From a virus, in the IMG/VR virus record IMGVR_UViG_3300031825_000038, positions 1 to 40,097 of that record: a stretch of 40,097 bases of DNA; one strand, written 5' to 3'. Positions within the stretch are counted from its first letter, which is position 1, and every line of letters starts with the position of its first letter. Positions 5,218 through 40,097 of this stretch are shown piece after piece. The notes under the pieces were generated by a model. That model did no database searches and was not told where the DNA came from. It saw only the letters and a program-made list of their open reading frames with translations. The translations under genes were made by a program, and so were the position numbers.

Positions 5218-6841
5218 CGACCTCGCCATCGACTTCGATCCGCTGCACACCCTCGGCTTCCTGGCAACGGACTGGATCGAGGCGCACTGCAAGGTCCCGG
5301 GTGGGGTCTATGAGGGTGATCCGCTGGTCTTCAACGGCTGGCAGCTCTTCGTCACGGCGAGCCACTACCGGATCAAGCCGGACGCCTTGGTCGACCCGCG
5401 TCGGCTACTCGCACCGTTCCACTACCGGCGCTCGGTCGTCGTCGGCCCACAGAAGGCCGGCAAGTCGCCGTGGGGTGCTGGGTTCCTGCTGTTCGAGGGT
5501 GTTGGCCCCGCGCTGTTCGCCGGGTGGGCCAAGGGTGGTGAGGTCTACCGCTGCGCCGACCACGGCTGCGACTGTGGCTGGGAGCGACCATACGAGCTTG
5601 GCGAGGCGATGGGTGTCCCCCGTCGCAAGTCCCTGATTGGGCTCCTGGCGGCGGCGGAGTCGCAGACGGCGAACGTCTACGAGCCGTTGCAGACGCTCAT
5701 CCACAACGGCCCGCTGGGTGCGTTCGTGAAGGTTCGCGAGGGCTTCGTCCGCCTGCCGAACCGTGGCCTCATCGTCCCGCTGACGTCGAAGGCGCGTTCG
5801 AAGCTCGGCCAGCCGCTGACCTGTGCCCTAGGCGACGAGTCGGGCACGTACACCGCCGAGAACGGCGTGTTGGGCACCTGGCAGACGATGCGCCGCGGCG
5901 TTGCCGCGATGCAGGGCCGCACGGTCGAGCTGACCAACCCGTGGGACCCGATGGAGAACTCAGCGGCCCAGCAGGCGTTCGAGTCCCGGCGCCCTGACAT
6001 CTTCCGCTACTACCGCAAGCCGCCGGCCGACCTGTCCTACGGAAGCAGGCGGGATCGGCACAAGATCCATGTGCACGTGTACGCCGACTCCCCGTGGGTC
6101 GACCCCAGCGCGATCGACGCTGAGGCGGCCGAGCTCGTCGAGACGGACCCGACGCAGGCGGAGCGGTTCTACGGCAACAGGCTCGTGCAGGGCCGCGGCG
6201 CCTACCTCACCGAGGCTGAGATCACGGGCCAGCAGGTCTTGGTCACCCGGGAGCCGCTGCGGCGGATCTGCCTTGGCTTCGACGGGTCGTTCTCGAAGGA
6301 CTGGACCGCGATCCGCGCCGAGGATGTCTCGCGGCTGCGATTCACCCCCACCTATGACGTCGGCGGAGACCTGCGCCCGACGTTCTGGAACCCCGATGAG
6401 CACGGCGGTCGCATCCCGCGCGGCGAGGTGCTGTCGGCGTTTGCGTGGCTGTTCGCGAACTACGACGTGGAGCGCGTCTACTGCGACCCGCGCGAGTGGG
6501 AGACCGAGATCGACGACCTCGCCCTCACCTACGGCGAGGAGCGGGTCGTGAAGTGGCCGACGAACCAGATCCCACGCATGTTCGACGCCCTGGTGCGGTA
6601 CCGCACCGACCTGCTGGCCGGCACGACGCACCACCTTGCCGACCAGGCATGGAAGACGCACGTGCTCAACGCGCGGATGGTCGCCAAGGCTGGCGACAAG
6701 TTCATCCTCGGCAAGCCCTCCGAGCACCAGCACATTGACCTGGCCATGGCTGACGTCCTGGCCCACGAGGCCGCCGCGGATGCCCGCGCTGAGGGCTGGT
6801 CGGCCGTACCCGAGCCCGCGTACTTCCGATTGCCGCGCTGA
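5207..6841 (+). CDS. terL: Terminase large subunit
   Basis: ATPase/nuclease that drives DNA into the prohead. GTG 5207 overlaps the small-subunit gene by 11 bases. In the 544-residue product the Walker A-like loop is GPQKAGKS (80-87) and the Walker B-like motif is ALGDES (207-212). The C-terminal RNase H-like nuclease is marked by GFDGS (D359), YCDPREWE (425-432) and HIDLAMADV (D511, D516). A Cys-containing loop, CADHGCDCGW (116-125), lies between the ATPase motifs. Length and motif order are normal for a siphophage large terminase. Confidence 0.95.
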   Translation: MAADDLAIDFDPLHTLGFLATDWIEAHCKVPGGVYEGDPLVFNGWQLFVTASHYRIKPDALVDPRRLLAPFHYRRSVVVGPQKAGKSPWGAGFLLFEGVGPALFAGWAKGGEVYRCADHGCDCGWERPYELGEAMGVPRRKSLIGLLAAAESQTANVYEPLQTLIHNGPLGAFVKVREGFVRLPNRGLIVPLTSKARSKLGQPLTCALGDESGTYTAENGVLGTWQTMRRGVAAMQGRTVELTNPWDPMENSAAQQAFESRRPDIFRYYRKPPADLSYGSRRDRHKIHVHVYADSPWVDPSAIDAEAAELVETDPTQAERFYGNRLVQGRGAYLTEAEITGQQVLVTREPLRRICLGFDGSFSKDWTAIRAEDVSRLRFTPTYDVGGDLRPTFWNPDEHGGRIPRGEVLSAFAWLFANYDVERVYCDPREWETEIDDLALTYGEERVVKWPTNQIPRMFDALVRYRTDLLAGTTHHLADQAWKTHVLNARMVAKAGDKFILGKPSEHQHIDLAMADVLAHEAAADARAEGWSAVPEPAYFRLPR

Positions 6842-24978: not shown

Positions 24979-25280
24979 CCCAGGTCAAGCACGGTGACAC
25001 CCACGACATCACCATCGCCGTCACCAGCGACGGTGCGGCGGTGGACCTGACCGGCGCCACGATCCGCGTCCTGGCCAGACCCACAGGCACCGCCGACACC
25101 GCCACCGTCCTTGCGCACACCGTCACCGACGCGGCCGCCGGCACCCTGAGCCACACCCTCACCGGCACCCTCGCGGTCGGCCCCTGGGATGTCGAGGTCG
25201 AGGTCACCCGCGCCGGGAAGATCACCACCTACCCCACGGCCGGCTACCTGCGGCTCGACGTGGCGGCCGACATCGGCTAA
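24975..25280 (+). CDS. Ig-like baseplate/fibre accessory protein (BppU N-terminal-like)
   Basis: GTG 24975 overlaps the fibre stop. The 101-residue product, VKHGDTHDITIAVTSDGAAVDLTGATIRVLARPTG...GPWDVEVEVTRAGKITTYPTAGYLRLDV, has the strand pattern of the N-terminal domain of BppU-type baseplate proteins. It is the last gene of the rightward late operon, ending just before the bidirectional terminator. Confidence 0.75.
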   Translation: MTQVKHGDTHDITIAVTSDGAAVDLTGATIRVLARPTGTADTATVLAHTVTDAAAGTLSHTLTGTLAVGPWDVEVEVTRAGKITTYPTAGYLRLDVAADIG

Positions 25281-25289
25281 CCCCGGCGC

Positions 25290-25347
25290 GGGCGCACGAA
25301 AGCGGCCCCACTCTCCTTCGGGAGGGTGGGGCCGCTTTCGTGCGCCC
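25290..25347. terminator. Bidirectional terminator between convergent operons
   Basis: Arms 25290-25316 and 25321-25347 are 27 bases each, pair along their whole length with a single G-T wobble, and are closed by a TTCG loop. An inner AAAGCGGCCCC...GGGGCCGCTTT gives A- and T-rich flanks on both strands. It separates the rightward late operon from the leftward gene at 25364-26197. Confidence 0.9.
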
Positions 25348-25363
25348 GGGGGCCAGGTTGGGG

Positions 25364-26197
25364 TCAGCCGCGGCTGAGGTCGGTCGGCAAGATCGGGAAG
25401 TCGGGGAGCGCGAGGTTGCCGTCGGTGCGTTCAAGAGCGGCGATCGTGGCGAACACGTCAGCTCGGGTCAGTCCAGCCCGGGTCAGAAGGCGATCTTCGG
25501 CCTGTGCGCGGGCCTCGTGCGTGAACTCCGGCAGACGCTCGAAGAAGTCCGTGGCGACCGAGACGGCAACGTCGTCGCCGGTGTCGTCGAAGTCGCGGAT
25601 CTCGCCGCGGAAACCGATCCCGCCGCGCATCGTGCCTGGGTGAGCCTGCCCGCGATCCGTGCGCGCGACGGGCCGCAGGACTGCGGCGGCCCTGCCGGCG
25701 CCGTCGGTCTGCCACTCGACGAAGACCGTGCCTGTGAGGTTGAGGGCGGCATCGATCTGCGCGACCAGCTCGTCGCGGTGCGCGTCGAGCATGGCCGCCA
25801 GAAACGCGTCGGGCTCGGTGCCGTCCGGGATCTCCTGGTGGGCGATCGGGGTCCATCCGATGCCGAGCCCGGCGACGCCGATGGCACGGTTGGCGAACCC
25901 CACGTTGCGCAGCAGCCGATCACAGCGAACCTGGTCGGCCCACCCGCCAGGCCACGTCGGCTCGACCCACAGCGTCACCGGGTCCTCGGCTCCGGCAACC
26001 AAGCGGCCGGTGCGGATCGCCCAGGTGCGGATCGTGGCCCAGTGCCAGGCGGGGCGTCCGCCGACCGTCCAGTCCGGGTCGGGCATGCCGCCGCGACGGC
26101 CCGTGCGCCACTGGTCGACGGTGTTGCGCTCGACCCCGAGCGCGGAGGCGATCTCGCGGATGCCGACCGGGGTGTCGGGGTTCAGGTGGCTAGTCAT
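25364..26197 (-). CDS. Helix-turn-helix protein of unknown function (277 aa)
   Basis: ATG at 26197 (minus), with GGAG upstream. Residues 11-35 (VGIREIASALGVERNTVDQWRTGRR) form a clear helix-turn-helix, followed by a wing-like GRPAWHWATIRTWAIRTGR as in AlpA/MerR-type regulators. The remaining 210 residues (CDRLLRNVGFANRAIGVAGLGIGWTPI..., TDFFERLPEFTHEARAQAEDRLL) match no family I know. It is distal in a leftward two-gene unit under the operator-bearing promoter at 26643-26694 and may be the regulator of that promoter. Its place between late genes and integrase is typical of genes expressed from the prophage. Confidence 0.75.
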   Translation of the reverse strand: MTSHLNPDTPVGIREIASALGVERNTVDQWRTGRRGGMPDPDWTVGGRPAWHWATIRTWAIRTGRLVAGAEDPVTLWVEPTWPGGWADQVRCDRLLRNVGFANRAIGVAGLGIGWTPIAHQEIPDGTEPDAFLAAMLDAHRDELVAQIDAALNLTGTVFVEWQTDGAGRAAAVLRPVARTDRGQAHPGTMRGGIGFRGEIRDFDDTGDDVAVSVATDFFERLPEFTHEARAQAEDRLLTRAGLTRADVFATIAALERTDGNLALPDFPILPTDLSRG

Positions 26198-26232
26198 GGC
26201 GCGTGCTCCGTTCGGTTCGGTCGCGGGGGGGG

Positions 26233-26622
26233 TCAGTCGGCGTCGCAGTCGTAGCCGCCACAGGAGCGGCCGGACCCGACGGACGAGCAGTTGCCGCCGG
26301 TGATGCAGGCGTGGCGGCGGCTCGTCGAGCGGCCGTAGTGGCCGTTGCGGAAGGCGATGGCCTGGGCGCGGGTGAAGGTCTCGCTGCTCTGGCGCGGCTT
26401 GCGGCTCGCTGTCGCCGGCTTGGGGTCCAGGGACTCGAAGGCGACCATGAGGAAGGCGCCGCCGTCCATCTGCTCGAACCAGTCGCCGAGCCGGACCCGG
26501 GTGGTCGAGCCGTTCGAACGGGTGGCGACCGCCTCGGCGCCTTCGACCCACTGGTCGGCCGGGACCTTGAGCATCCACTGGCCCTCGTCGCCCTTGGTGA
26601 AGGTGATCCGCTGCTCGCTCAT
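26233..26622 (-). CDS. Hypothetical protein with Cys-rich C-terminus (129 aa)
   Basis: ATG at 26622 (minus) after GGGAGAG. A beta-rich front half (RITFTKGDEGQWMLKVPADQWVEG..., TTRVRLGDWFEQMDGGAFLMVAFE) is followed by a basic linker and a tail with four Cys (ACITGGNCSS...RSCGGYDCDAD) that could bind a metal. First gene after the double-operator promoter, so probably tightly regulated and lysogen-expressed. Function unknown. Confidence 0.7.
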   Translation of the reverse strand: MSEQRITFTKGDEGQWMLKVPADQWVEGAEAVATRSNGSTTRVRLGDWFEQMDGGAFLMVAFESLDPKPATASRKPRQSSETFTRAQAIAFRNGHYGRSTSRRHACITGGNCSSVGSGRSCGGYDCDAD

Positions 26623-26642
26623 CGTCCGATCCGCTCTCCCGC

Positions 26643-26694
26643 TGACAAGACAATCTTGTCATGCGCACGGCGGGATGACAAGAGGGTCTTGTCG
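26643..26694 (-). promoter_or_regulatory. Leftward promoter overlapped by two palindromic operators
   Basis: Operator 1 (26643-26661) is TGACAAGACAATCTTGTCA, a perfect 8-bp inverted repeat around CAA. Operator 2 (26676-26694) is TGACAAGAGGGTCTTGTCG, the same with one end mismatch. Their centres are 33 bp apart, about three helical turns. On the minus strand TTGTCA within operator 2 serves as -35 and, after exactly 17 bases, CAAGAT within operator 1 serves as -10. A repressor bound at both sites would block this promoter completely. Confidence 0.75.
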
Positions 26695-26758
26695 CCCGAC
26701 CGGGTGAATCCTCCGCGCGATCACAGCTCGTCGTCGAGGCCGTGCCGGCGGCGAGCGG

Positions 26759-28000
26759 TCAGTGGCCGATCTGGCGACGCGGGGACAGAAGGTCCCCGAG
26801 GGCAGCGACGGCCCGTGCAGCCGCCTCCGAGGTGATGTGGGTGTACCCGCGCGTCACGGTCGCCGACGAGTGCCCGAGGATCTGCATCCGGGTCTGCTCG
26901 TCCACCCCCAGGTCGGCTAGCAGAGTCGAGCAGGTGTGGCGGGCGCTGTGCAGGGGGACATCCGGCAGGTCCGCCTGGCGCAGGGCGGCATCCCATGCCT
27001 CGGCGTCGTCGCGAGGGTCTGTCACCCCGAAGACCAGTCCCTCTGGGCCTGGAGGGTGCGTGTCGATCCACGCGGACAGTCGGTCGGCTACGCGCGGCAG
27101 GAGCGGGACCTGCCGCCATCCGGCTCGACTCTTGGGGCGCGTGAGCCACAGGCCGCCGGACACGTGCCGCGCCTCCTGGTCGGGCGGGATGAACACCGAC
27201 CGACCAGGGCACTCGGAGCCGCGCTTACGTCCGCAGTCGGGGTCGCACCCATGCCGCCAGGAGAGCCGCTGCAACTGCCACGCCACGGTCAGCATCGGGA
27301 CGTCGAGGTCGAGCATTGGGACGGTGATGCCCAGCCGCTCCCCCTGACGCAGCCCAGCCGTCAGCGCGAGGGCCCACATCAGACTCGCCCGCTCGTCGTC
27401 ATCCACGGACGACAGCAGCTCGCGCGCGTCGTGGGCCGTCAGCGCGGGACGCACGGCAACGGCCCGTCGGGGCGCGTCGGTGTGCGCCTTGTCGGCGACG
27501 TTCTTCGTCACCAGACCGGCTCGCCCTGCGTCTCGCAGAGCCACGGTGAGGATGCGATGCGCCTGGAGGGCCGTCGTGGTGGACAGCCCGAGCCCCGCCG
27601 GCTTGGGGCTCGTGATCGTGTCGCGCAGGTGGTACACGTGCGAGGGAGAGAGCCGCTCGAGGCGCACCTTGCCGAGGATGGGCACGATGTAGCGCTCGCT
27701 GTACCCGCGGTACGTCTCCGCGGTGCGCGGCTTGAGCCCGGGAGCGCTCTGTGCCAGCCACAGCGGCATCCAGGTGGCGACCGTGGGTGACGACGTGGGC
27801 AGGTCGCCGTAGCGCCCGAGGTCGGCGTTCAGCCGCTTGAGCTTGTCGGCTGCCACGTCCTTCGACCGGGACCGCACGACCTTGACGCGGCGCTTCCCGC
27901 CCGGCCCGGGCGGTAGTTCGACGCGGGCGGTCCACAGCCCACGGGAGTCCTGGAAAAGCGCCCCGGCCCCGGCGTCGCGGCGCTTGGTCTTTGACGGCAC
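26759..28000 (-). CDS. int: Tyrosine-family integrase
   Basis: A 413-residue site-specific recombinase from GTG 28000 (minus) with GGAGGTG upstream. It has an N-terminal arm-binding region (ALFQDSRGLWTARVELPPG), a SAM-like core-binding domain (about 73-170) and a catalytic domain with R218 (TAGLRQGE), K290 (TRPKSRAG), H351-x2-R354 (HSARH), H377 (LGHSS) and Y386 (TRGYTHI). An inserted loop, HGCDPDCGRKRGSECPG (C252, C256, C264), could bind zinc. The attP core and arm repeats lie directly upstream of the gene. Confidence 0.95.
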   Translation of the reverse strand: MPSKTKRRDAGAGALFQDSRGLWTARVELPPGPGGKRRVKVVRSRSKDVAADKLKRLNADLGRYGDLPTSSPTVATWMPLWLAQSAPGLKPRTAETYRGYSERYIVPILGKVRLERLSPSHVYHLRDTITSPKPAGLGLSTTTALQAHRILTVALRDAGRAGLVTKNVADKAHTDAPRRAVAVRPALTAHDARELLSSVDDDERASLMWALALTAGLRQGERLGITVPMLDLDVPMLTVAWQLQRLSWRHGCDPDCGRKRGSECPGRSVFIPPDQEARHVSGGLWLTRPKSRAGWRQVPLLPRVADRLSAWIDTHPPGPEGLVFGVTDPRDDAEAWDAALRQADLPDVPLHSARHTCSTLLADLGVDEQTRMQILGHSSATVTRGYTHITSEAAARAVAALGDLLSPRRQIGH

Positions 28001-28016
28001 GGATCACACCTCCGTA

Positions 28017-28036
28017 GGTGTACCCAAGGTGTACCC
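28017..28036. repeat. Left arm-type sites of attP
   Basis: Two direct copies of GGTGTACCC at 28017-28025 and 28028-28036, 11 bp start to start, about 100 bp left of the attP core. With the pair at 28219-28239 they flank the core as integrase arm-binding sites do. They overlap the region before the integrase start and could also mediate autoregulation. Confidence 0.7.
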
Positions 28037-28132
28037 CGGCATATGCCGGAGCAGTTCGGAACACTACCGCACGGCACCCGCTCTGACCTGTGCTTTCACC
28101 TCATCAGCGCTCGTCTCAGGGTACCATGCGAC

Positions 28133-28179
28133 GGACTTTTAATCCGCGGGTTGTGGGTTCGATCCCCACGGGGCCCACC
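28133..28179 (+). other. attP: attP core, 3' half of tRNA-Lys(TTT)
   Basis: The segment reads from the anticodon stem of a tRNA-Lys (CGGACTTTTAATCCG, anticodon TTT at 28138-28140) through the T arm (GTGGGTTCGATCCCCAC) to the acceptor strand and ACC at 28177-28179. No matching 5' half with a complementary acceptor strand lies upstream, so this is not a whole tRNA but the phage copy used to restore the host gene on integration. It lies in one piece next to int, so the sequence represents the excised or virion form. Confidence 0.9.
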
Positions 28180-28218
28180 GTGTCTGACCTCGCCACATAG
28201 GCCGTACCGCGCCGGGTC

Positions 28219-28239
28219 GGTGTACCCGACGGTGTACCC
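28219..28239. repeat. Right arm-type sites of attP
   Basis: Two direct copies of GGTGTACCC at 28219-28227 and 28231-28239, 12 bp start to start, both in the context cGGTGTACCCga. They lie about 40-60 bp right of the core and mirror the left pair. Confidence 0.7.
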
Positions 28240-28347
28240 GAGGCTCGCGCGACACCCCCTCATGTCGAATGTCCCATCTGCCGATGCCGGTGACATAGCC
28301 CCCGGTCGCGGACGTCCGGTCAGCCACTCGCGGGCACGGGTGTCGGC

Positions 28348-28521
28348 GTGGAGGACGTGCTGGCCGCGCTCGGGGTCACTCTCATCGATGTGCCCGGGAT
28401 GCGCCACGAGGGGTGCTGGGTGGGTGCCGAGCGGATCGCGCTCGTCCGCGCCGGCCTACCAGTGGCGGTCAGGGATGACGTGCTCGACCAGATGGTTCAG
28501 CGGGCTCTCTCGTTGGAGTGA
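28348..28521 (+). CDS. Small protein between attP and repressor (57 aa)
   Basis: A GTG at 28348 opens a 57-residue frame, VEDVLAALGVTLIDVPGMRHEGCWVGAERIALVRAGLPVAVRDDVLDQMVQRALSLE, with high third-position GC and protein-like helix/strand spacing. The ribosome site is weak. It converges on the repressor gene and overlaps its 3' end by 53 bases. The pattern faintly recalls short ImmA/IrrE-like remnants, but no HExxH is present. Treat as a probable small gene of unknown role. Confidence 0.5.
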   Translation: MEDVLAALGVTLIDVPGMRHEGCWVGAERIALVRAGLPVAVRDDVLDQMVQRALSLE

Positions 28522-29023
28522 TGGGCTCGCCGCTATCGACTACGAGTCGACCGGGCGGGTCGACGAGCTCGATGCCGCGGCTCGCCAGGGCGAGGGCGAG
28601 ACCCTTGCGCGCCGCCACCGCTAGCGAGTCGCCGGCGAGCATCATCTCTATGCCGCCCTCGATCGCCGCGGCGACGATCGCCACCCTGTCGAGCTTTCCC
28701 CCGTAGGCGTCGAGCGTCCGCTCGGCGGCGCCGCGGAGCGCGTCGATATCGCGCCGCGAGGGGAACATCCGCGCCGGCGGCGGGTACGCGCTCCGAGAGC
28801 GGTACCCGGTGTCGACCAAGGCCGCGTCGAGGACCCGTTCGTACTCAACCTGGATCTCCCGTGCGGCGGCGACCAGCAGCCACGGTTCAGGCGGTCGCTT
28901 CAGGCCTCGCTTCTTCCATGAGTTCAGCGTCTGCGCCGACGTGCCCATGCGCCGAGCCAGCGCCGCGTCGCGGACGCCGTACTGGTCCAGGTGTCCCTGG
29001 ATGAGGTCCCACAGCATGCCCAT
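28469..29023 (-). CDS. Immunity repressor (CI-like)
   Basis: ATG at 29023 (minus), 8 bases after GGGAGGG. The 184-residue product has an N-terminal helix-turn-helix (RDAALARRMGTSAQTLNSWKKRG, about 18-40) with a basic extension, then a helical C-terminal domain (IDALRGAAERTLDAYGGKLDRVAIVAAAIEGGIEMMLAG) probably for dimerisation. No LexA-like Ser/Lys protease site is evident, so induction may depend on the antirepressor at 29552. It is divergent from the Cro-like gene across the 235-base switch region, the normal place for the lysogeny repressor. Confidence 0.8.
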   Translation of the reverse strand: MGMLWDLIQGHLDQYGVRDAALARRMGTSAQTLNSWKKRGLKRPPEPWLLVAAAREIQVEYERVLDAALVDTGYRSRSAYPPPARMFPSRRDIDALRGAAERTLDAYGGKLDRVAIVAAAIEGGIEMMLAGDSLAVAARKGLALALASRGIELVDPPGRLVVDSGEPITPTREPAEPSGRARHP

Positions 29024-29258
29024 GTCACCACCCTCCCGACGCTAGGAGCGGTGGCAAGTCCGTGGATACCGACCCGTCTACCGCCACAAGGGCGCTCCGC
29101 GCCAAGAAACGTCTACCAACCGAGAGGCGTCAGTCTGCCGCAAGTCCGCAGGCTGCGGAACGACACGTGTGTAACTTCTTGACAGTCGTCTACCAACCCG
29201 GCAAGAATCATCCGCAGTCAGTTGACACCGAGGCGTCTACCTAGAGAGGATCACCGCA
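29024..29258. promoter_or_regulatory. Lysis-lysogeny switch region with four GTCTACC repeats
   Basis: GTCTACC occurs at 29076-29082, 29111-29117, 29188-29194 and 29235-29241; the two middle copies extend to GTCTACCAAC. A rightward promoter is likely: TTGACA at 29179-29184 and AAGAAT at 29203-29208 (18-base spacer), with the third repeat inside the spacer. A second TTGACA is at 29222-29227. A weak leftward candidate (TTGTGG then TATCCA on the minus strand, 15-base spacer) spans the first repeat. The repeats are the best candidates for repressor/Cro operators. Confidence 0.65.
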
Positions 29259-29552
29259 GTGCAGCAGCACACCGCACGATGGCCGAAGGGAACGTGGATG
29301 AGGCTCACGTCAGCGCAGACGCTGAGGGCGCTGATCGACCAGCGCGGCTTCTCCTACGAGCAGCTCGCCCGCTACGCCGGCTGCTCGAAGTCGTTCGTCA
29401 GCCACCTGACCTCCGGTCGCAAGAACACCTGCACGCCGCGGCTTGCGGTGCGCATCGCGGAGGCGCTCTCGGTCCCCACCGAGATCCTTTTCGTGGCTTC
29501 TGCATCCGCCGTCAGCGGACGTAGCGTCCGCGTTCCAGTGAAGGTGGCCTGA
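29259..29552 (+). CDS. Cro-like XRE-family regulator
   Basis: A 97-residue protein. GTG 29259 has GAGAGG upstream; ATG 29298 after AGGGA is a good alternative that removes 13 residues. The helix-turn-helix is FSYEQLARYAGCSKSFVSHLTSGRK (about 31-55), followed by RLAVRIAEALSVPTEILF, a complete XRE fold. It is first in the rightward operon and divergent from the repressor, so it probably acts as Cro or a secondary regulator on the GTCTACC sites. Confidence 0.85.
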   Translation: MQQHTARWPKGTWMRLTSAQTLRALIDQRGFSYEQLARYAGCSKSFVSHLTSGRKNTCTPRLAVRIAEALSVPTEILFVASASAVSGRSVRVPVKVA

Positions 29553-30343
29553 TGTCAACCGCCCTGATCCAGCACGCGTTCCACGGCCAGGCCATCCGGG
29601 TGGTGCTCGACGAGCACGGAGAGCCGTGGTTCGTCGCCAAGGACGTCACCGCGGTGCTCGGCATCACGAACGGGCGCGACGCGCTCAGCCGCGTCGACTC
29701 CGATGGGGTCGGTACTGCCGACGTCATCGACTCGCTCGGACGGACGCAGGCCGCGAGCACCGTCAACGAGGGAGGCCTGTACGAGCTGATCTTCCAGTCC
29801 CGCCGCCCCGAGGCGCGGGAGTTCCGCCGCTGGGTCACCACCGAGGTGCTGCCGAGCATCCGCCGCACCGGGCACTACGGCCCGGCCGATGTCGCGCAGA
29901 TCACACGCTCCGACCTGGCCCGCTGGGTCATCGAAGCCGAGGCGCGGGCCGAGAAGGCAGAGGCGGCAGTCGCCATCCTCGAGCCGCCAGCCCGCGCATG
30001 GCAGACCCTCGCCGAGGCGACGGGCGACTACAGCCTGCGCGACGCCGCACAGATCCTCGACCGCGACGAGTCGATCAAGACCGGGCAGAACCGCCTCGCG
30101 CAGTACCTCCGGCAGATCGGCTGGCTCGACAAGACCGGAACGCCCTACCAGCGGGTCGTCGAGGTCGGCTACGTGCGATCCCGGGCGCGCACCTACCGCC
30201 ACCACCGGACTGGCGAGGAGATGGTTGCCGAGCCGCAGGTGCGCATCACCGGCAAGGGACTCTCGTGGCTACACAAGCACCTGGGCGGCACCGAACCGCT
30301 CGACGCAGAGCTGCCGGCGCTCCCGCTGGAGGTCGTGCGATGA
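29552..30343 (+). CDS. Phage antirepressor, BRO-N plus KilA-C/ANT domains
   Basis: A 263-residue protein; ATG 29552 shares one base with the previous stop. Residues 5-105 are a BRO-N domain (GEPWFVAKDVTAVLGITNGRDALSRV, STVNEGGLYELIFQSRRPEAREFRRWVTTEVLPSIRRTG). Residues about 140-250 are a KilA-C/ANT domain (YSLRDAAQILDR..., RLAQYLRQIGWL..., VRITGKGLSWLHKHLG). Such proteins inactivate phage repressors or modulate early gene expression. Immediately after the Cro-like gene. Confidence 0.92.
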   Translation: MSTALIQHAFHGQAIRVVLDEHGEPWFVAKDVTAVLGITNGRDALSRVDSDGVGTADVIDSLGRTQAASTVNEGGLYELIFQSRRPEAREFRRWVTTEVLPSIRRTGHYGPADVAQITRSDLARWVIEAEARAEKAEAAVAILEPPARAWQTLAEATGDYSLRDAAQILDRDESIKTGQNRLAQYLRQIGWLDKTGTPYQRVVEVGYVRSRARTYRHHRTGEEMVAEPQVRITGKGLSWLHKHLGGTEPLDAELPALPLEVVR

Positions 30344-34796: not shown

Positions 34797-35174
34797 ATGA
34801 CCGCGCTCACGGACCGCCTGGACCAGTGGGCCGCACTGGCAGAGAAGGCGACCGAGGGGCCGTGGGCGGTCGACGAGACGATCGGCGCGACCATCGTCCA
34901 GAGCTGCGAGGGTGAGGTTGCCGACTGTGTGGTGTCGGCCGACGCCGCCTTCATCACCGCGTCCCGTACCGCACTCCCGGCCACCATCGAGGCGCTGCGA
35001 GCCGTGCTGGATCTGCACGTGCCGGGCGACGGCAACTCTGTGGGCTACACGCCGCTTGGCTACAGGAGCATCGAGCCGTACTGCGCCGGGTGCGAGGCGT
35101 GCGACGAGTACGCCGTCGAGTGGCCCTGTCGCACCGTCCGCGCCATCGCCACCGCGCTGGGGGTCCAGCCGTGA
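34797..35174 (+). CDS. Ea22-like hypothetical protein (125 aa)
   Basis: ATG 34797 overlaps the TGA of a 10-codon minicistron (34768-34800). The product, RLDQWAALAEKATEGPWAVDETIG..., VSADAAFITASRTALPATIEALRAVLDLH, follows the pattern of a phage protein type often labelled Ea22-like. A central CAGCEACDEY and a final VEWPCRTVRAIATAL add Cys; the end resembles that of the 2561 product. Role unknown. Confidence 0.75.
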   Translation: MTALTDRLDQWAALAEKATEGPWAVDETIGATIVQSCEGEVADCVVSADAAFITASRTALPATIEALRAVLDLHVPGDGNSVGYTPLGYRSIEPYCAGCEACDEYAVEWPCRTVRAIATALGVQP

Positions 35175-35272
35175 CCGCCTACCTCCTCGGTGTCGCAACC
35201 GGTGCCGTCGTCACCCTCGCCATCGTCCTCGCAGCCGACATCGCCCGGATCATGCAGGAGACGAAGCGATGA
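35171..35272 (+). CDS. Tiny membrane protein (33 aa)
   Basis: GTG 35171 overlaps the previous stop and TGA overlaps the next ATG. MTAYLLGVATGAVVTLAIVLAADIARIMQETKR is a single hydrophobic helix with a charged C-terminal end. Function unknown. Confidence 0.65.
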   Translation: MTAYLLGVATGAVVTLAIVLAADIARIMQETKR

Positions 35273-36591
35273 GCCTCCGAGTCGGCGCCCTGTTCGCAGG
35301 CTACGGCGGCCTCGAGCGAGCCGTGTCGATGGTGTTCCCGACCGCCCGCCCCGTGTGGTTCAGCCAGTACGACCCGGAGGGCGGGGAGCGGCAGGCTCCG
35401 TCGCGCATCCTCGCCCACCACTGGCCCGACGTGCCCAACCACGGGGACATCACCCGCATCGACTGGTCGCAGGTCGAGCCCATCGACATCCTCACCGGCG
35501 GCTTCCCGTGCCAGGACGTGTCGCACGCCGGCAAGCGCGCCGGACTCGGAGCCACCACACGCACCGGCCTGTGGGGCCGTATGGCCGACGCCATCGACAC
35601 GCTGCGGCCGCGCCTGGTCGTCGCGGAGAACGTGAGGGGGTTGCTCAGTGCCCAGGCCGATAGCGACGTGGAGCCGTGCCCGTGGTGCATGGGAGGTGCC
35701 GCAGACGGGGAACCTCCTCTGCGAGCACTCGGAGCTGTTCTCGGAGACCTGGCCGAGCTCGGGTTTGACGCGGCGTGGGTCGGCCTTCGTGCTGCCGATG
35801 TGGGTGCCCCGCATGGGCGCTTCCGGGTCTTCATCCTCGCTTGGCCGCAGTCCGACACCGGGGCGCTGACCTGGCCGCAGTCCGACACCGGGGCGCTACT
35901 ACCCACCCCCGCCGTCAACGACATGGGTGCCGCGTACATGCCCGACGAGTGGGACGAGTGGACCGCCAGGATGCGCGCCGAGCACGGCAACGGCAACGGG
36001 CACGGGAACAGCCTGTCCGTGGAGGCGCTGCGGCTGCTGCCGACGCCGACCGTCTCGGACACGAACGGTGCGGGCGAGCATGGCACCGGCGGGGCAGACC
36101 TGCGCACCGCCGTGAGCCTGCTGCCGACGCCGCGCGCGACGGACGGCACGAAGGGTGGCCCGCACCAGCGCGGCTCGTCCGGAGACCTCATGCTGCCGAG
36201 CGCGGTACTGCTGCCAACGCCTACCGCGATGGACTCCAAGGCGAGCGGGGGCAACCCCGACACGACCGGCACTCATGGAACGACGCTCACCGACGCGACC
36301 GTGCGCCAGTCCGTCGACTTCGGCCAGTACGCGCCCGCCATCGCCCGCTGGGAAGCCATCACCCGACCCGCACCATCGCCCACCGAGCCGACCGGCAAGG
36401 GCGGTGCCCAACGCCTCTCCCCGCGTTTCGTCGAGTGGATGCAAGGACTGCCTGACGGGTGGGTGACCGACGTTCCCGGCATCACCCGCAACGACACGCT
36501 CAAGGCGCTCGGGAACGGCGTCGTACCTCAGCAGGCCGCCGAAGCCATCCGATGGTTGCTGGACGTGCGGGCTACGGCGATGGCCGCATGA
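35269..36591 (+). CDS. C5-cytosine DNA methyltransferase
   Basis: A 440-residue enzyme from ATG 35269. Motif I is LFAGYGGLERA, motif IV is GGFPCQDVS (catalytic C81), motif VI is ENVRG (120-124), motif VIII is APHGRFRVF and the last motif is LGNGVVPQQA. The region between VIII and IX, normally the target-recognition part, contains four LLPTP motifs (210, 256, 284, 314) and a 30-bp tandem duplication (35842-35871, 35872-35898) coding two copies of a TWPQSDTGAL-like segment. No partner endonuclease is coded, so it probably protects phage DNA from host restriction. Confidence 0.93.
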   Translation: MSLRVGALFAGYGGLERAVSMVFPTARPVWFSQYDPEGGERQAPSRILAHHWPDVPNHGDITRIDWSQVEPIDILTGGFPCQDVSHAGKRAGLGATTRTGLWGRMADAIDTLRPRLVVAENVRGLLSAQADSDVEPCPWCMGGAADGEPPLRALGAVLGDLAELGFDAAWVGLRAADVGAPHGRFRVFILAWPQSDTGALTWPQSDTGALLPTPAVNDMGAAYMPDEWDEWTARMRAEHGNGNGHGNSLSVEALRLLPTPTVSDTNGAGEHGTGGADLRTAVSLLPTPRATDGTKGGPHQRGSSGDLMLPSAVLLPTPTAMDSKASGGNPDTTGTHGTTLTDATVRQSVDFGQYAPAIARWEAITRPAPSPTEPTGKGGAQRLSPRFVEWMQGLPDGWVTDVPGITRNDTLKALGNGVVPQQAAEAIRWLLDVRATAMAA

Positions 36592-37311: not shown

Positions 37312-37884
37312 ATGGCTGTTTCGAAGCGTACACGTTTCGAGGTCCTGCGGCGTGACGAGCTCACCTGCCGCTACTGCCGATCCAGGGACAACGCGCTGAC
37401 CGTTGACCACGTGGTCCCGGTCGCTCTCGGTGGATCAGACGACCCGAGCAACCTCGTTGCCGCGTGCAAGGACTGCAACGCCGGCAAGGCGAGCGCCAGC
37501 CCCGACGAGGCGATGGTGGCACAGGTCGAGGCATCGGCGGTGGTGTGGGCGGCTGCGATCAAGGCGGCGGCGCTAAAGCGGGCATCCGAACGGGCAGAGC
37601 GCGACGCCTATGTACGGGAGTTCGACGAGGCGTGGTGTGTCTGGCACTACACGTCCGACACGGAGCGGGTCGTTGACCGTGACGACGAGTGGCTGATGTC
37701 GGTCTGGCGCTTCTACGAGCTCGGCCTTCCGATCGGAGACCTTCTCGACGGAATCCAGATCGCGATGCGAAACACGAGGGTCGCCAACCGCGACAAGTGG
37801 AAGTACACGTGCGGCGTCGCATGGCGCTCGCTCGACAAGATCCAGGGAGACGCCAAGAAGATGGCCGACTGGGGGGCGTTCTGA
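37312..37884 (+). CDS. HNH endonuclease with C-terminal extension
   Basis: A 190-residue protein from ATG 37312. Residues 8-60 are a complete HNH nuclease: C19-x2-C22, VDHVVPVALGG (D32-H33), NL at 48 and C52-x2-C55-N56. Residues 75-190 form a separate helical domain (ERAERDAYVREFDEAWCVWHYTSDTERVVDRDDEWL, KWKYTCGVAWRSLDKIQ) not part of the nuclease. It overlaps the start of the replication gene by one base and may be a homing-type enzyme or an early DNA-processing enzyme. Confidence 0.88.
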   Translation: MAVSKRTRFEVLRRDELTCRYCRSRDNALTVDHVVPVALGGSDDPSNLVAACKDCNAGKASASPDEAMVAQVEASAVVWAAAIKAAALKRASERAERDAYVREFDEAWCVWHYTSDTERVVDRDDEWLMSVWRFYELGLPIGDLLDGIQIAMRNTRVANRDKWKYTCGVAWRSLDKIQGDAKKMADWGAF

Positions 37885-39201: not shown

Positions 39202-39941
39202 GCGAGACGAGCATGACGGCCAGCGACGAGGACCGGGACGCGCTGGCGCGGGCGCTTCACGACGCCTCCGAGATCGGGGGGGTGACCCCGCCATGGGATC
39301 GTGAGCAACCCGAGGGCCGTCAGCATTGGCTCGCGCTCTCCGACGCTGCCCTGGCCTGGTTCGCCTCCCGTCCCCAGGCCGCACCGAGTGCCTGCTGCGA
39401 GGCGACCGATGTGGTTGACGGCCACTGGCTGGTCGAGGTCCACCAGCACTGCACGTGCGGTGACGGCGGTCCGATGGGTCACGAGCCCGGATGTGGCACG
39501 GTTCCGTTGATCGACCTCGCGGGCCTTCCGGGCGGGGAGCACCTGCTGGCAGCACCGAGCGTGAGCCGGCCAGAGGCGGACGCGCTTCCGTCATGGGCGA
39601 CCGCGCTGGATCACGTCTGCATCACGGCGAAGTGCAGTGGCTGCGGTGAGCACGTGTCCCAGTTCGAGGACTCAGGAGTGGCCCACTTCGACTCGATCGA
39701 GGACGCCCTCGCGAGCATTGCGGACGACGACGACGACGCGGACCACGTGGTCATCGGCGACGAACTACTGTGCCGCAACTGCCGCGACAAGCGCGAGTGT
39801 GAGCGCGTCGGCCACGACTGGGTCCACCACGAGTCGTTCCTCGGCCCCTACAGCCGGACGGTTCCCGAGTTCTGGACCTGCTCGCTCTGCGGTCACGGGT
39901 CGAAGACGGACCCGACCCTCACGCACGAGGTGACCCCGTGA
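39198..39941 (+). CDS. Cys-rich multi-zinc-finger-like protein (247 aa)
   Basis: ATG 39198 opens a 247-residue acidic protein. Residues 1-60 are helical (EDRDALARALHDASEIGG, LSDAALAWFASRP). CC and CTCGDGGPMGHEPGC follow, then CSGC, CRNC and CSLC pairs spread over residues 147-235, suggesting two or more zinc ribbons. The Asp run (DDDDD) is unusual. Bases 39684-39941 recur at 1-261 with small differences, so this is the complete form of the truncated gene at the window start. Function unknown. Confidence 0.75.
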   Translation: MSETSMTASDEDRDALARALHDASEIGGVTPPWDREQPEGRQHWLALSDAALAWFASRPQAAPSACCEATDVVDGHWLVEVHQHCTCGDGGPMGHEPGCGTVPLIDLAGLPGGEHLLAAPSVSRPEADALPSWATALDHVCITAKCSGCGEHVSQFEDSGVAHFDSIEDALASIADDDDDADHVVIGDELLCRNCRDKRECERVGHDWVHHESFLGPYSRTVPEFWTCSLCGHGSKTDPTLTHEVTP

Positions 39942-40097
39942 CCGACCCGACGCCCCGTGAGCAGGCGGCGGAGGTGCTGGCGGCGCACGGGGAGCAGCAC
40001 ATCGCGACTGTCGACGGCGACCTTTGGTGCACGACCTGCGACCGGACCATCGGGTCGGCTGAGGACGACGCAGAGACCGACCGGGTGATCGCCACCC
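39938..40097 (+). CDS. VHRYVTEWRTA-family protein, 3'-truncated by the window edge
   Basis: GTG 39938 overlaps the previous stop. MTDPTPREQAAEVLAAHGEQHIATVDGDLWCTTC... starts like the 258-626 gene and then, from 39971, is base-for-base identical to 1546-1672 inside the 1399-1872 gene. If the molecule is circular with 40097 joined to 1673, the frame is kept and the gene ends at 1872 as a 119-residue protein. That protein would be collinear with the 258-626 product. Confidence 0.75.
   Translation, partial: MTDPTPREQAAEVLAAHGEQHIATVDGDLWCTTCDRTIGSAEDDAETDRVIAT
39971..40097 (+). repeat. 127-bp terminal repeat identical to 1546-1672
   Basis: The last 127 bases match 1546-1672 without a mismatch; the base before differs (39970 G, 1545 A). 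Together with the imperfect 1-261 / 39684-39941 repeat this indicates overlapping ends of a circular or circularly permuted genome assembled from mixed alleles. Confidence 0.8.

What the first reader, a model, noticed from the sequence alone, without database searches (positions are those of the whole stretch)
26643..26694. Two palindromic operators placed exactly on the -35 and -10 of a leftward promoter
TGACAAGA-N3-TCTTGTCR occurs twice with centres 33 bp apart. One copy supplies the -35 (TTGTCA), the other the -10 (CAAGAT), with a 17-base spacer. I noticed no other copy in the window, so this looks like a dedicated circuit separate from the GTCTACC switch. Candidate binders are the HTH protein at 25364-26197 (autoregulation) or a host factor.
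Basis: partly seen in the sequence, partly recalled or inferred. Interest (0 to 1): 0.6.

Follow-up and report, generated by a model that had tools for sequence, protein, structure and literature searches.

The report
Twin repressor sites on phage promoter
A temperate phage, probably of a high-GC actinobacterium, carries two near-identical mirror-image DNA sites laid over the likely promoter of a small two-gene operon beside its integrase, which looks like an ordinary repressor-controlled switch, apart from the phage's main immunity switch, whose controlling protein is not yet known.

Summary
TGACAAGACAATCTTGTCA (26643-26661) and TGACAAGAGGGTCTTGTCG (26676-26694) are the window's only copies; none is expected by chance. 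On the minus strand they supply TTGTCA and CAAGAT, 17 bases apart, the second or fourth best sigma70-like site of the 40 kb by two scorings, though a stricter scan misses it. The proximal dyad ends 20 bases before the ATG of a 129-aa gene; a 277-aa HTH gene follows, both leftward, between tail genes and integrase. Best reading: tandem dyad operators that sterically repress this two-gene promoter. The immunity repressor is an unlikely binder: its probable operators are asymmetric GTCTACC repeats, three of which keep the spacing (77, 47) of GTACACC repeats in Gordonia phage Malibo. Autoregulation by the HTH protein leads but is untested. A widespread host factor is not supported: the site is no commoner in viral contigs than one N4-spaced control (26 against 55 stretches); host genomes could not be searched. 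Palindromic operators on phage promoters are a known design, so this is a new member of a known kind.

The parts
26643..26661 (.). Promoter-proximal palindromic operator TGACAAGACAATCTTGTCA (8-bp arms, 3-bp centre); covers the -10 and the predicted start point
26676..26694 (.). Promoter-distal palindromic operator TGACAAGAGGGTCTTGTCG (7-bp perfect arms); covers the -35
26653..26681 (-). Sigma70-like promoter TTGTCA-17-CAAGAT with TG upstream of the -10
   Evidence: rank 2 of all positions, both strands; fourth distinct site with other weights; not listed. Weights recalled, not from a call
26233..26622 (-). 129-aa protein P0001 with Cys-rich C terminus (CITGGNCSS..GRSC..YDCD); first gene of the operon, no family found
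   Evidence: GC by codon position 0.59/0.58/0.96
25364..26197 (-). 277-aa protein P0002: N-terminal AlpA/excisionase-like HTH, rest without relatives found; candidate autoregulator
   Evidence: GC by codon position 0.72/0.55/0.88
25285..25355 (.). Very strong hairpin (-71.7 kcal/mol) between the tail genes and P0002, probable bidirectional terminator closing the operon (inferred)
26759..28000 (-). Tyrosine integrase; its 3' end lies 64 bases upstream of the distal operator
28469..29023 (-). Immunity repressor homologue (Malibo gp44, CarolAnn gp45); judged not to be the binder
29076..29241 (+). Four GTCTACC heptamers (29076, 29111, 29188, 29235), likely operators of the immunity repressor; shown for contrast

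Best explanation
The two dyads are tandem operators for a homodimeric DNA-binding protein that represses, by steric hindrance, a minus-strand promoter driving the two-gene operon P0001-P0002 at the tail/integrase junction. The distal dimer covers the -35, the proximal one the -10 and the start point (predicted near 26646, about 24 nt before the ATG). Centres 33 bp apart are about 3.1 helical turns, so two dimers would sit on nearly the same face and could cooperate. The circuit is separate from the phage immunity switch. Most likely single binder: P0002 itself (autoregulation, about 40%). Shown: the sites, identity of their arms, geometry, gene order, and no enrichment of the site in viral contigs. 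Inferred: promoter activity, repression, cooperativity, the binder, and that the operon is a prophage-expressed accessory module.
For: Only two sites, none expected by chance, and no identical-arm pair in 60 shuffles. Both arms are the same in both copies while the centres differ (CAA, GGG), as expected for sequence-specific dimer recognition. The promoter ranks second in the window (below 29179) or fourth (below 29179, 4022 and 29222). The ATG follows at 26622 in a gene with strong codon bias. P0002 is the only protein of the operon with an HTH hit. The repressor homologue of Malibo goes with asymmetric heptamers instead, at the spacing of three of the window's four. In CarolAnn, leftward genes 38 and 39, left of its integrase, are expressed in the lysogen (PMC6426606, passages; map).
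Against: The -10 matches only 3 of 6 and a standard scan misses the site. Hexamers come with the palindrome, so the fit is less independent than it looks. P0002's Pfam hits are below the cut-offs, its best PHROG (phrog_597) is a broad HTH family found in 8 of 14 control genomes, and AlpA/excisionase-type domains (recalled) usually bind short repeated or asymmetric sites rather than 19-bp dyads. No relative with the same operon was found, so there is no conservation test. CarolAnn's integrase is of the serine type, so its position match is loose.
Confidence: 0.62

Rival explanations
1. The dyads are sites of a host regulator (for example a TetR-, MarR- or GntR-type protein) that lets the phage sense host state and tune P0001-P0002.
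For: A perfect dyad with a 3-bp centre suits dimeric regulators; [quoted passage not shown] The phage proteins scanned offer no obvious dyad-binding dimer beyond the Cro-like 29259-29552 product (not every ORF was scanned).
Against: The exact site is no commoner in viral contigs than one N4-spaced control (26 against 55 stretches). Tandem pairs with 5-35 bases between occur in 1 viral contig (L123) and 2 genome contigs (L124 Saccharibacteria, L125 Desulfobacterales), none high-GC (0.51, 0.42, 0.53); a second pair pattern gave 0. Nothing in phage records; in plasmid records 1 weak hit inside a gene. Host genomes were not searched, and the genome collection was scanned for pairs only.
Confidence: 0.22
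2. The dyads act as RNA hairpins (terminator, processing or anti-termination signal after the integrase message) rather than as operators.
For: Each folds alone (-11.7 and -10.5 kcal/mol) and the two can pair with each other (-29 and -31.4 kcal/mol on the two strands; z -3.3 and -5.0). They lie between two co-directional genes.
Against: No T run follows and the terminator scan lists none on this strand. The stems are not GC-rich in a 70.5% GC genome. Sequence identity of the arms is kept, which hairpin formation does not need. The predicted start point lies inside the proximal dyad. No Rfam match at this place.
Confidence: 0.1
3. The phage's Cro-like protein (29259-29552) or immunity repressor (28469-29023) binds here as a remote operator, as mycobacteriophage BPs repressor does at P6, P27 and P55.
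For: BPs precedent for remote operators made of two palindromes (PMC4557955, passages). The Cro-like product has a clear HTH_3/HTH_31 domain.
Against: The immunity region holds no TGACAAG or CTTGTCA and carries GTCTACC heptamers, three of them conserved in spacing with Malibo's GTACACC. The half-site is absent from the 12.4 kb of Malibo around its repressor and HTH genes.
Confidence: 0.12

Closest known systems
Mycobacteriophage BPs gp33 operators (PMC4557955, abstract and passages seen)
   Same: Pairs of short palindromes near a phage promoter, bound by a phage HTH repressor, with cooperativity that depends on spacing; also used at promoters away from the immunity region
   Different: BPs half-sites are 12 bp, 5 or 8 bp apart, one often degenerate, with OR between the -10 and -35 of PR. 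Here 19-bp near-perfect dyads, 14 bp apart, sit on the -35 and the -10, and the sites are not shared with the immunity region
Mycobacteriophage Jabbawokkie repressor/HTH intergenic palindromes TTGCGTGCACGCAA (seen here)
   Same: Actinophage with tandem identical dyads (37 bp apart) and a third copy whose arm supplies a -35-like TTGCGT, 17 bases from TACATT (rank 8 of its 13.2-kb stretch)
   Different: Located at the annotated repressor, not at an accessory operon; sequence unrelated; I read no paper on their function
Prophage-expressed genes of CarolAnn (38, 39; 43, 44) and Sbash (30, 31) (PMC6426606 passages; PMC6426596 passages and section 7)
   Same: Accessory genes near the integrase or repressor, expressed from the prophage; Sbash 30/31 from their own promoter
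   Different: P0001 and P0002 match nothing in the CarolAnn stretch nor in the phage collection (I did not check that Sbash is held). Sbash 30/31 run rightward. No defence function is shown here
MarR/TetR-type dual-operator promoters (recalled; the MarR statement seen in PMC5401885 passages)
   Same: 16-20 bp palindromes over -10 and -35 that block RNA polymerase
   Different: Regulator here unidentified; P0002 has no MarR or TetR family match in Pfam at E up to 1

Membership tests
Tandem-dyad, sterically repressed sigma70-type promoter | Two symmetric sites of the same sequence overlapping promoter elements | tested here: met
Tandem-dyad, sterically repressed sigma70-type promoter | Recognisable -35 and -10 with 16-18 bp spacer | tested here: inconclusive
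   5 of 6 and 3 of 6, spacer 17; ranks 2 and 4, but missed
Tandem-dyad, sterically repressed sigma70-type promoter | A protein binds both dyads and lowers transcription | not testable with these tools
   needs gel shift and reporter
Remote operator of the phage's own immunity repressor (BPs type) | Same site occurs in the immunity region | tested here: not met
   no TGACAAG/CTTGTCA there; GTCTACC heptamers instead
Autoregulated operon (P0002 as binder) | A DNA-binding protein is encoded in the operon | tested here: met
   N-terminal HTH, phrog_597 'DNA binding protein' E 7e-9, a broad family (8 of 14 control genomes); Pfam hits below cut-off. Binding itself not tested
Autoregulated operon (P0002 as binder) | Site travels with the gene in relatives | tested here: inconclusive
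   no relative of P0002 or related site pair found; the hit is spurious, the hit covers the HTH only
Intrinsic terminator | GC-rich stem followed by T run | tested here: not met
   none listed on the minus strand of 25200-29500
Actinobacterial LexA (SOS) box | CGAAC-N4-GTTCG type site (recalled) | tested here: not met
   sequence read directly

The most novel reading that the evidence does not exclude
P0001-P0002 is an undescribed autoregulated accessory (possibly defence or toxin-like) module carried at the tail/integrase junction, with a Cys-rich small protein and an HTH protein of new families, whose twin dyads form a self-contained on/off switch independent of prophage immunity.
Probability: 0.25. 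Interest if true: 0.5.

Novelty: new member of a known kind. Interest (0 to 1): 0.3.

Why it matters
If right, it marks a repressor-controlled accessory operon that a temperate actinophage would run independently of its immunity repressor, and gives a compact 62-bp promoter/operator fragment to fish for the regulator. It also points to two proteins without known families in a place where a phage with a related repressor keeps prophage-expressed genes.

Tried and rejected
Host factor through commonness: the exact site with N3, against one N4 control, gave 26 and 55 stretches of viral contigs, so no enrichment; one control spacing only. This is weak, because the window's own sites also lie under such mechanical ORFs.

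Pairs elsewhere: L123 (between a terminase-like ORF and a small ORF, centres 39 bp), L124 (Saccharibacteria; the arms continue as a different palindrome) and L125 (Desulfobacterales; a tandem 39-bp duplication of a consensus promoter upstream of formate-dehydrogenase-like ORFs) were read and judged unrelated; the gene names there are by eye, no family search was made. L101, L084 and L074 carry GTGACAAG/CTTGTCAC sites, clustered in L101 and L084, also judged unrelated.

L126, returned as a relative of P0002, is a tail-region ORF by eye, sharing only a short stretch; rejected. Structure predictions of P0002 and P0001 from single sequences were of very low confidence (mean pLDDT 39.4 and 40.9), so no fold search was run. 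A literature search with the two half sites gave 80 papers; the 20 listed look unrelated by title. A search with CTTGTCA and operator words gave 2; in PMC5401885 the letters are in primers, not in a site, and the other was not opened. A PADLOC hit of P0002 (PDC-M06B, E 6e-4, residues 6-64) covers only the HTH and was not taken as a defence assignment. The Rfam mir-4854 hit at 25285-25355 (35.6 against a gathering score of 100) is only the hairpin.

Corrections made on re-reading the calls: distances to the ATG (20 bases) and to the integrase (64), and the heptamer comparison, which holds for Malibo but not for CarolAnn.

Full report
The observation. The window is a virus record of 40097 bases, 70.5% GC. 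TGACAAGA-N3-TCTTGTCA occurs at 26643-26661 without mismatch and at 26676-26694 with one, and nowhere else with up to 3 mismatches; 100 shuffles gave none. The centres are 33 bp apart. In 60 dinucleotide shuffles of the window, 10 looser tandem palindrome pairs appeared but none with identical arms of 7 or more. The arms are the same in both copies while the 3-bp centres differ (CAA, GGG).

The promoter. On the minus strand TTGTCA (26681-26676) and CAAGAT (26658-26653) are 17 bases apart, with TG one base before the -10. Scoring every position of both strands with recalled sigma70 weights puts this second in the window, behind TTGACA-18-AAGAAT at 29179 in the immunity region. With flatter, actinobacterial-like weights (also recalled) it is the fourth distinct site, behind 29179, 4022 and 29222. 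A stricter consensus scan that needs 4 of 6 in the -10 misses it. The mirror-image rightward pair (TTGTCA/CAAGAG) ranks only 35th, and a transcript from it would run antisense to the integrase. The hexamers are part of the palindrome arms, so their presence is not independent evidence; the 33-bp spacing, which turns them into a 17-base spacer, is.

What it controls. The predicted start (near 26646, inferred) is about 24 nt before the ATG of P0001 (26622-26233), a 129-aa protein with a Cys-rich C terminus, no Pfam or PHROGs match and strong codon bias. P0002 follows (26197-25364, 277 aa): an N-terminal HTH (phrog_597 E 7e-9; phrog_2620 excisionase E 0.0016; phrog_597 is broad, 8 of 14 control genomes) and a C-terminal part without relatives found. 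Relatives of P0002 were not found in phage records; in plasmid records there was one hit to the HTH only, E 8e-3; in viral contigs the one hit was rejected. P0001 had no phage-record hit and one viral-contig hit, to its Cys motif (L122, 73% over 22 residues). A 71-nt hairpin of -71.7 kcal/mol separates the operon from the tail genes. The integrase (26759-28000) lies upstream, and a tRNA-like stretch at 28119-28177 is the probable attachment site. An actinobacterial host is inferred from GC and from integrase matches (534 phage records, 439 of them Mycobacterium and 45 Gordonia, all below 60% identity).

Who binds. The immunity repressor is an unlikely candidate: the 28469-29023 product matches Malibo gp44 (62% over 73 aa) and CarolAnn gp45 (54% over 79 aa). 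GTCTACC occurs at 29076, 29111, 29188 and 29235 in the repressor-Cro gap (and at 5543 and 7728). Malibo has GTACACC at 6217, 6294 and 6341 of L128, in its own gap (and at 2954, 10314, 10924). The last three of the window and these three have the same spacings, 77 and 47. The heptamer has changed while its places have not, as expected for operators that follow repressor specificity. CarolAnn has neither heptamer in its gap, only one GTNNACCA at 8211 of L197, so it does not add to this. No TGACAAG or CTTGTCA is found in the 12.4 kb of Malibo read. The Cro-like product (29259-29552) is not ruled out, but the dyad is absent from its own region. A widespread host factor is not supported by the viral counts (26 stretches for the site, 55 for an N4 control), but host genomes could not be searched. 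P0002 is left as the best single candidate, at about 40%.

Comparison. Palindromic operators on phage promoters are a known design. BPs repressor binds five regulatory regions and regulates four promoters, with full sites made of two half-sites (PMC4557955, abstract and passages). In Jabbawokkie I found two identical dyads 37 bp apart and a third whose arm supplies a -35-like hexamer, all between its repressor and HTH genes. Of the five other actinophage regions scanned (L128, L194-L197), only Jabbawokkie had an identical-arm tandem pair. In CarolAnn, leftward genes 38 and 39 left of its serine integrase are expressed in the lysogen (PMC6426606, passages; map). [quoted passage not shown] own promoter). 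The position of P0001-P0002 suggests, but does not show, a similar role.

Verdict. A real, non-random pair of likely operators on a plausible promoter, probably the switch of a small accessory operon. New member of a known kind; the binder and the two proteins' functions are open.

Noticed in passing
1-310 and 39684-39990; 1539-1672 and 39964-40097: The window end shares 307-310 bp at 96% with the window start and a further 134 bp at 99% with 1539-1672, repeating a Cys-rich ORF; redundant or near-repeated ends, hinting at an assembly overlap of variants or a repeat family.
   Followed up: partly
28119-28177: Part of a tRNA-Lys-like gene beside the integrase (Rfam tRNA 29.8 bits), probable attP core; the top-listed phage records are unannotated faecal phages.
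   Followed up: partly
29076, 29111, 29188, 29235: GTCTACC heptamers; three of the four have the same spacing (77, 47) as GTACACC heptamers in Gordonia phage Malibo: operator sequence changed while positions stayed. Not seen in CarolAnn.
   Followed up: partly
25285-25355: Near-perfect 71-nt hairpin, -71.7 kcal/mol, between convergent tail and P0002 genes.
   Followed up: partly
29552-30343: Bro-N plus ANT (KilAC) antirepressor-like protein next to the Cro-like gene.
   Followed up: no
34912-36591 and 37312-37884: C-5 cytosine methylase and HNH endonuclease in the early region.
   Followed up: no
L125 3585-3643: In a Desulfobacterales contig, a tandem 39-bp duplication of TTGACA-17-TATAAT enclosing TGACAAGACTATCTTGTCA upstream of ORFs that look like formate dehydrogenase by eye.
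   Followed up: partly
L101 5138-5430; L084 1027-1270: Clusters of GTGACAAG/CTTGTCAC half-sites and dyads in two viral contigs, beside ORFs that look like HNH and ATPase genes by eye; L074 has one dyad identical to L084's. A separate repeat system.
   Followed up: partly
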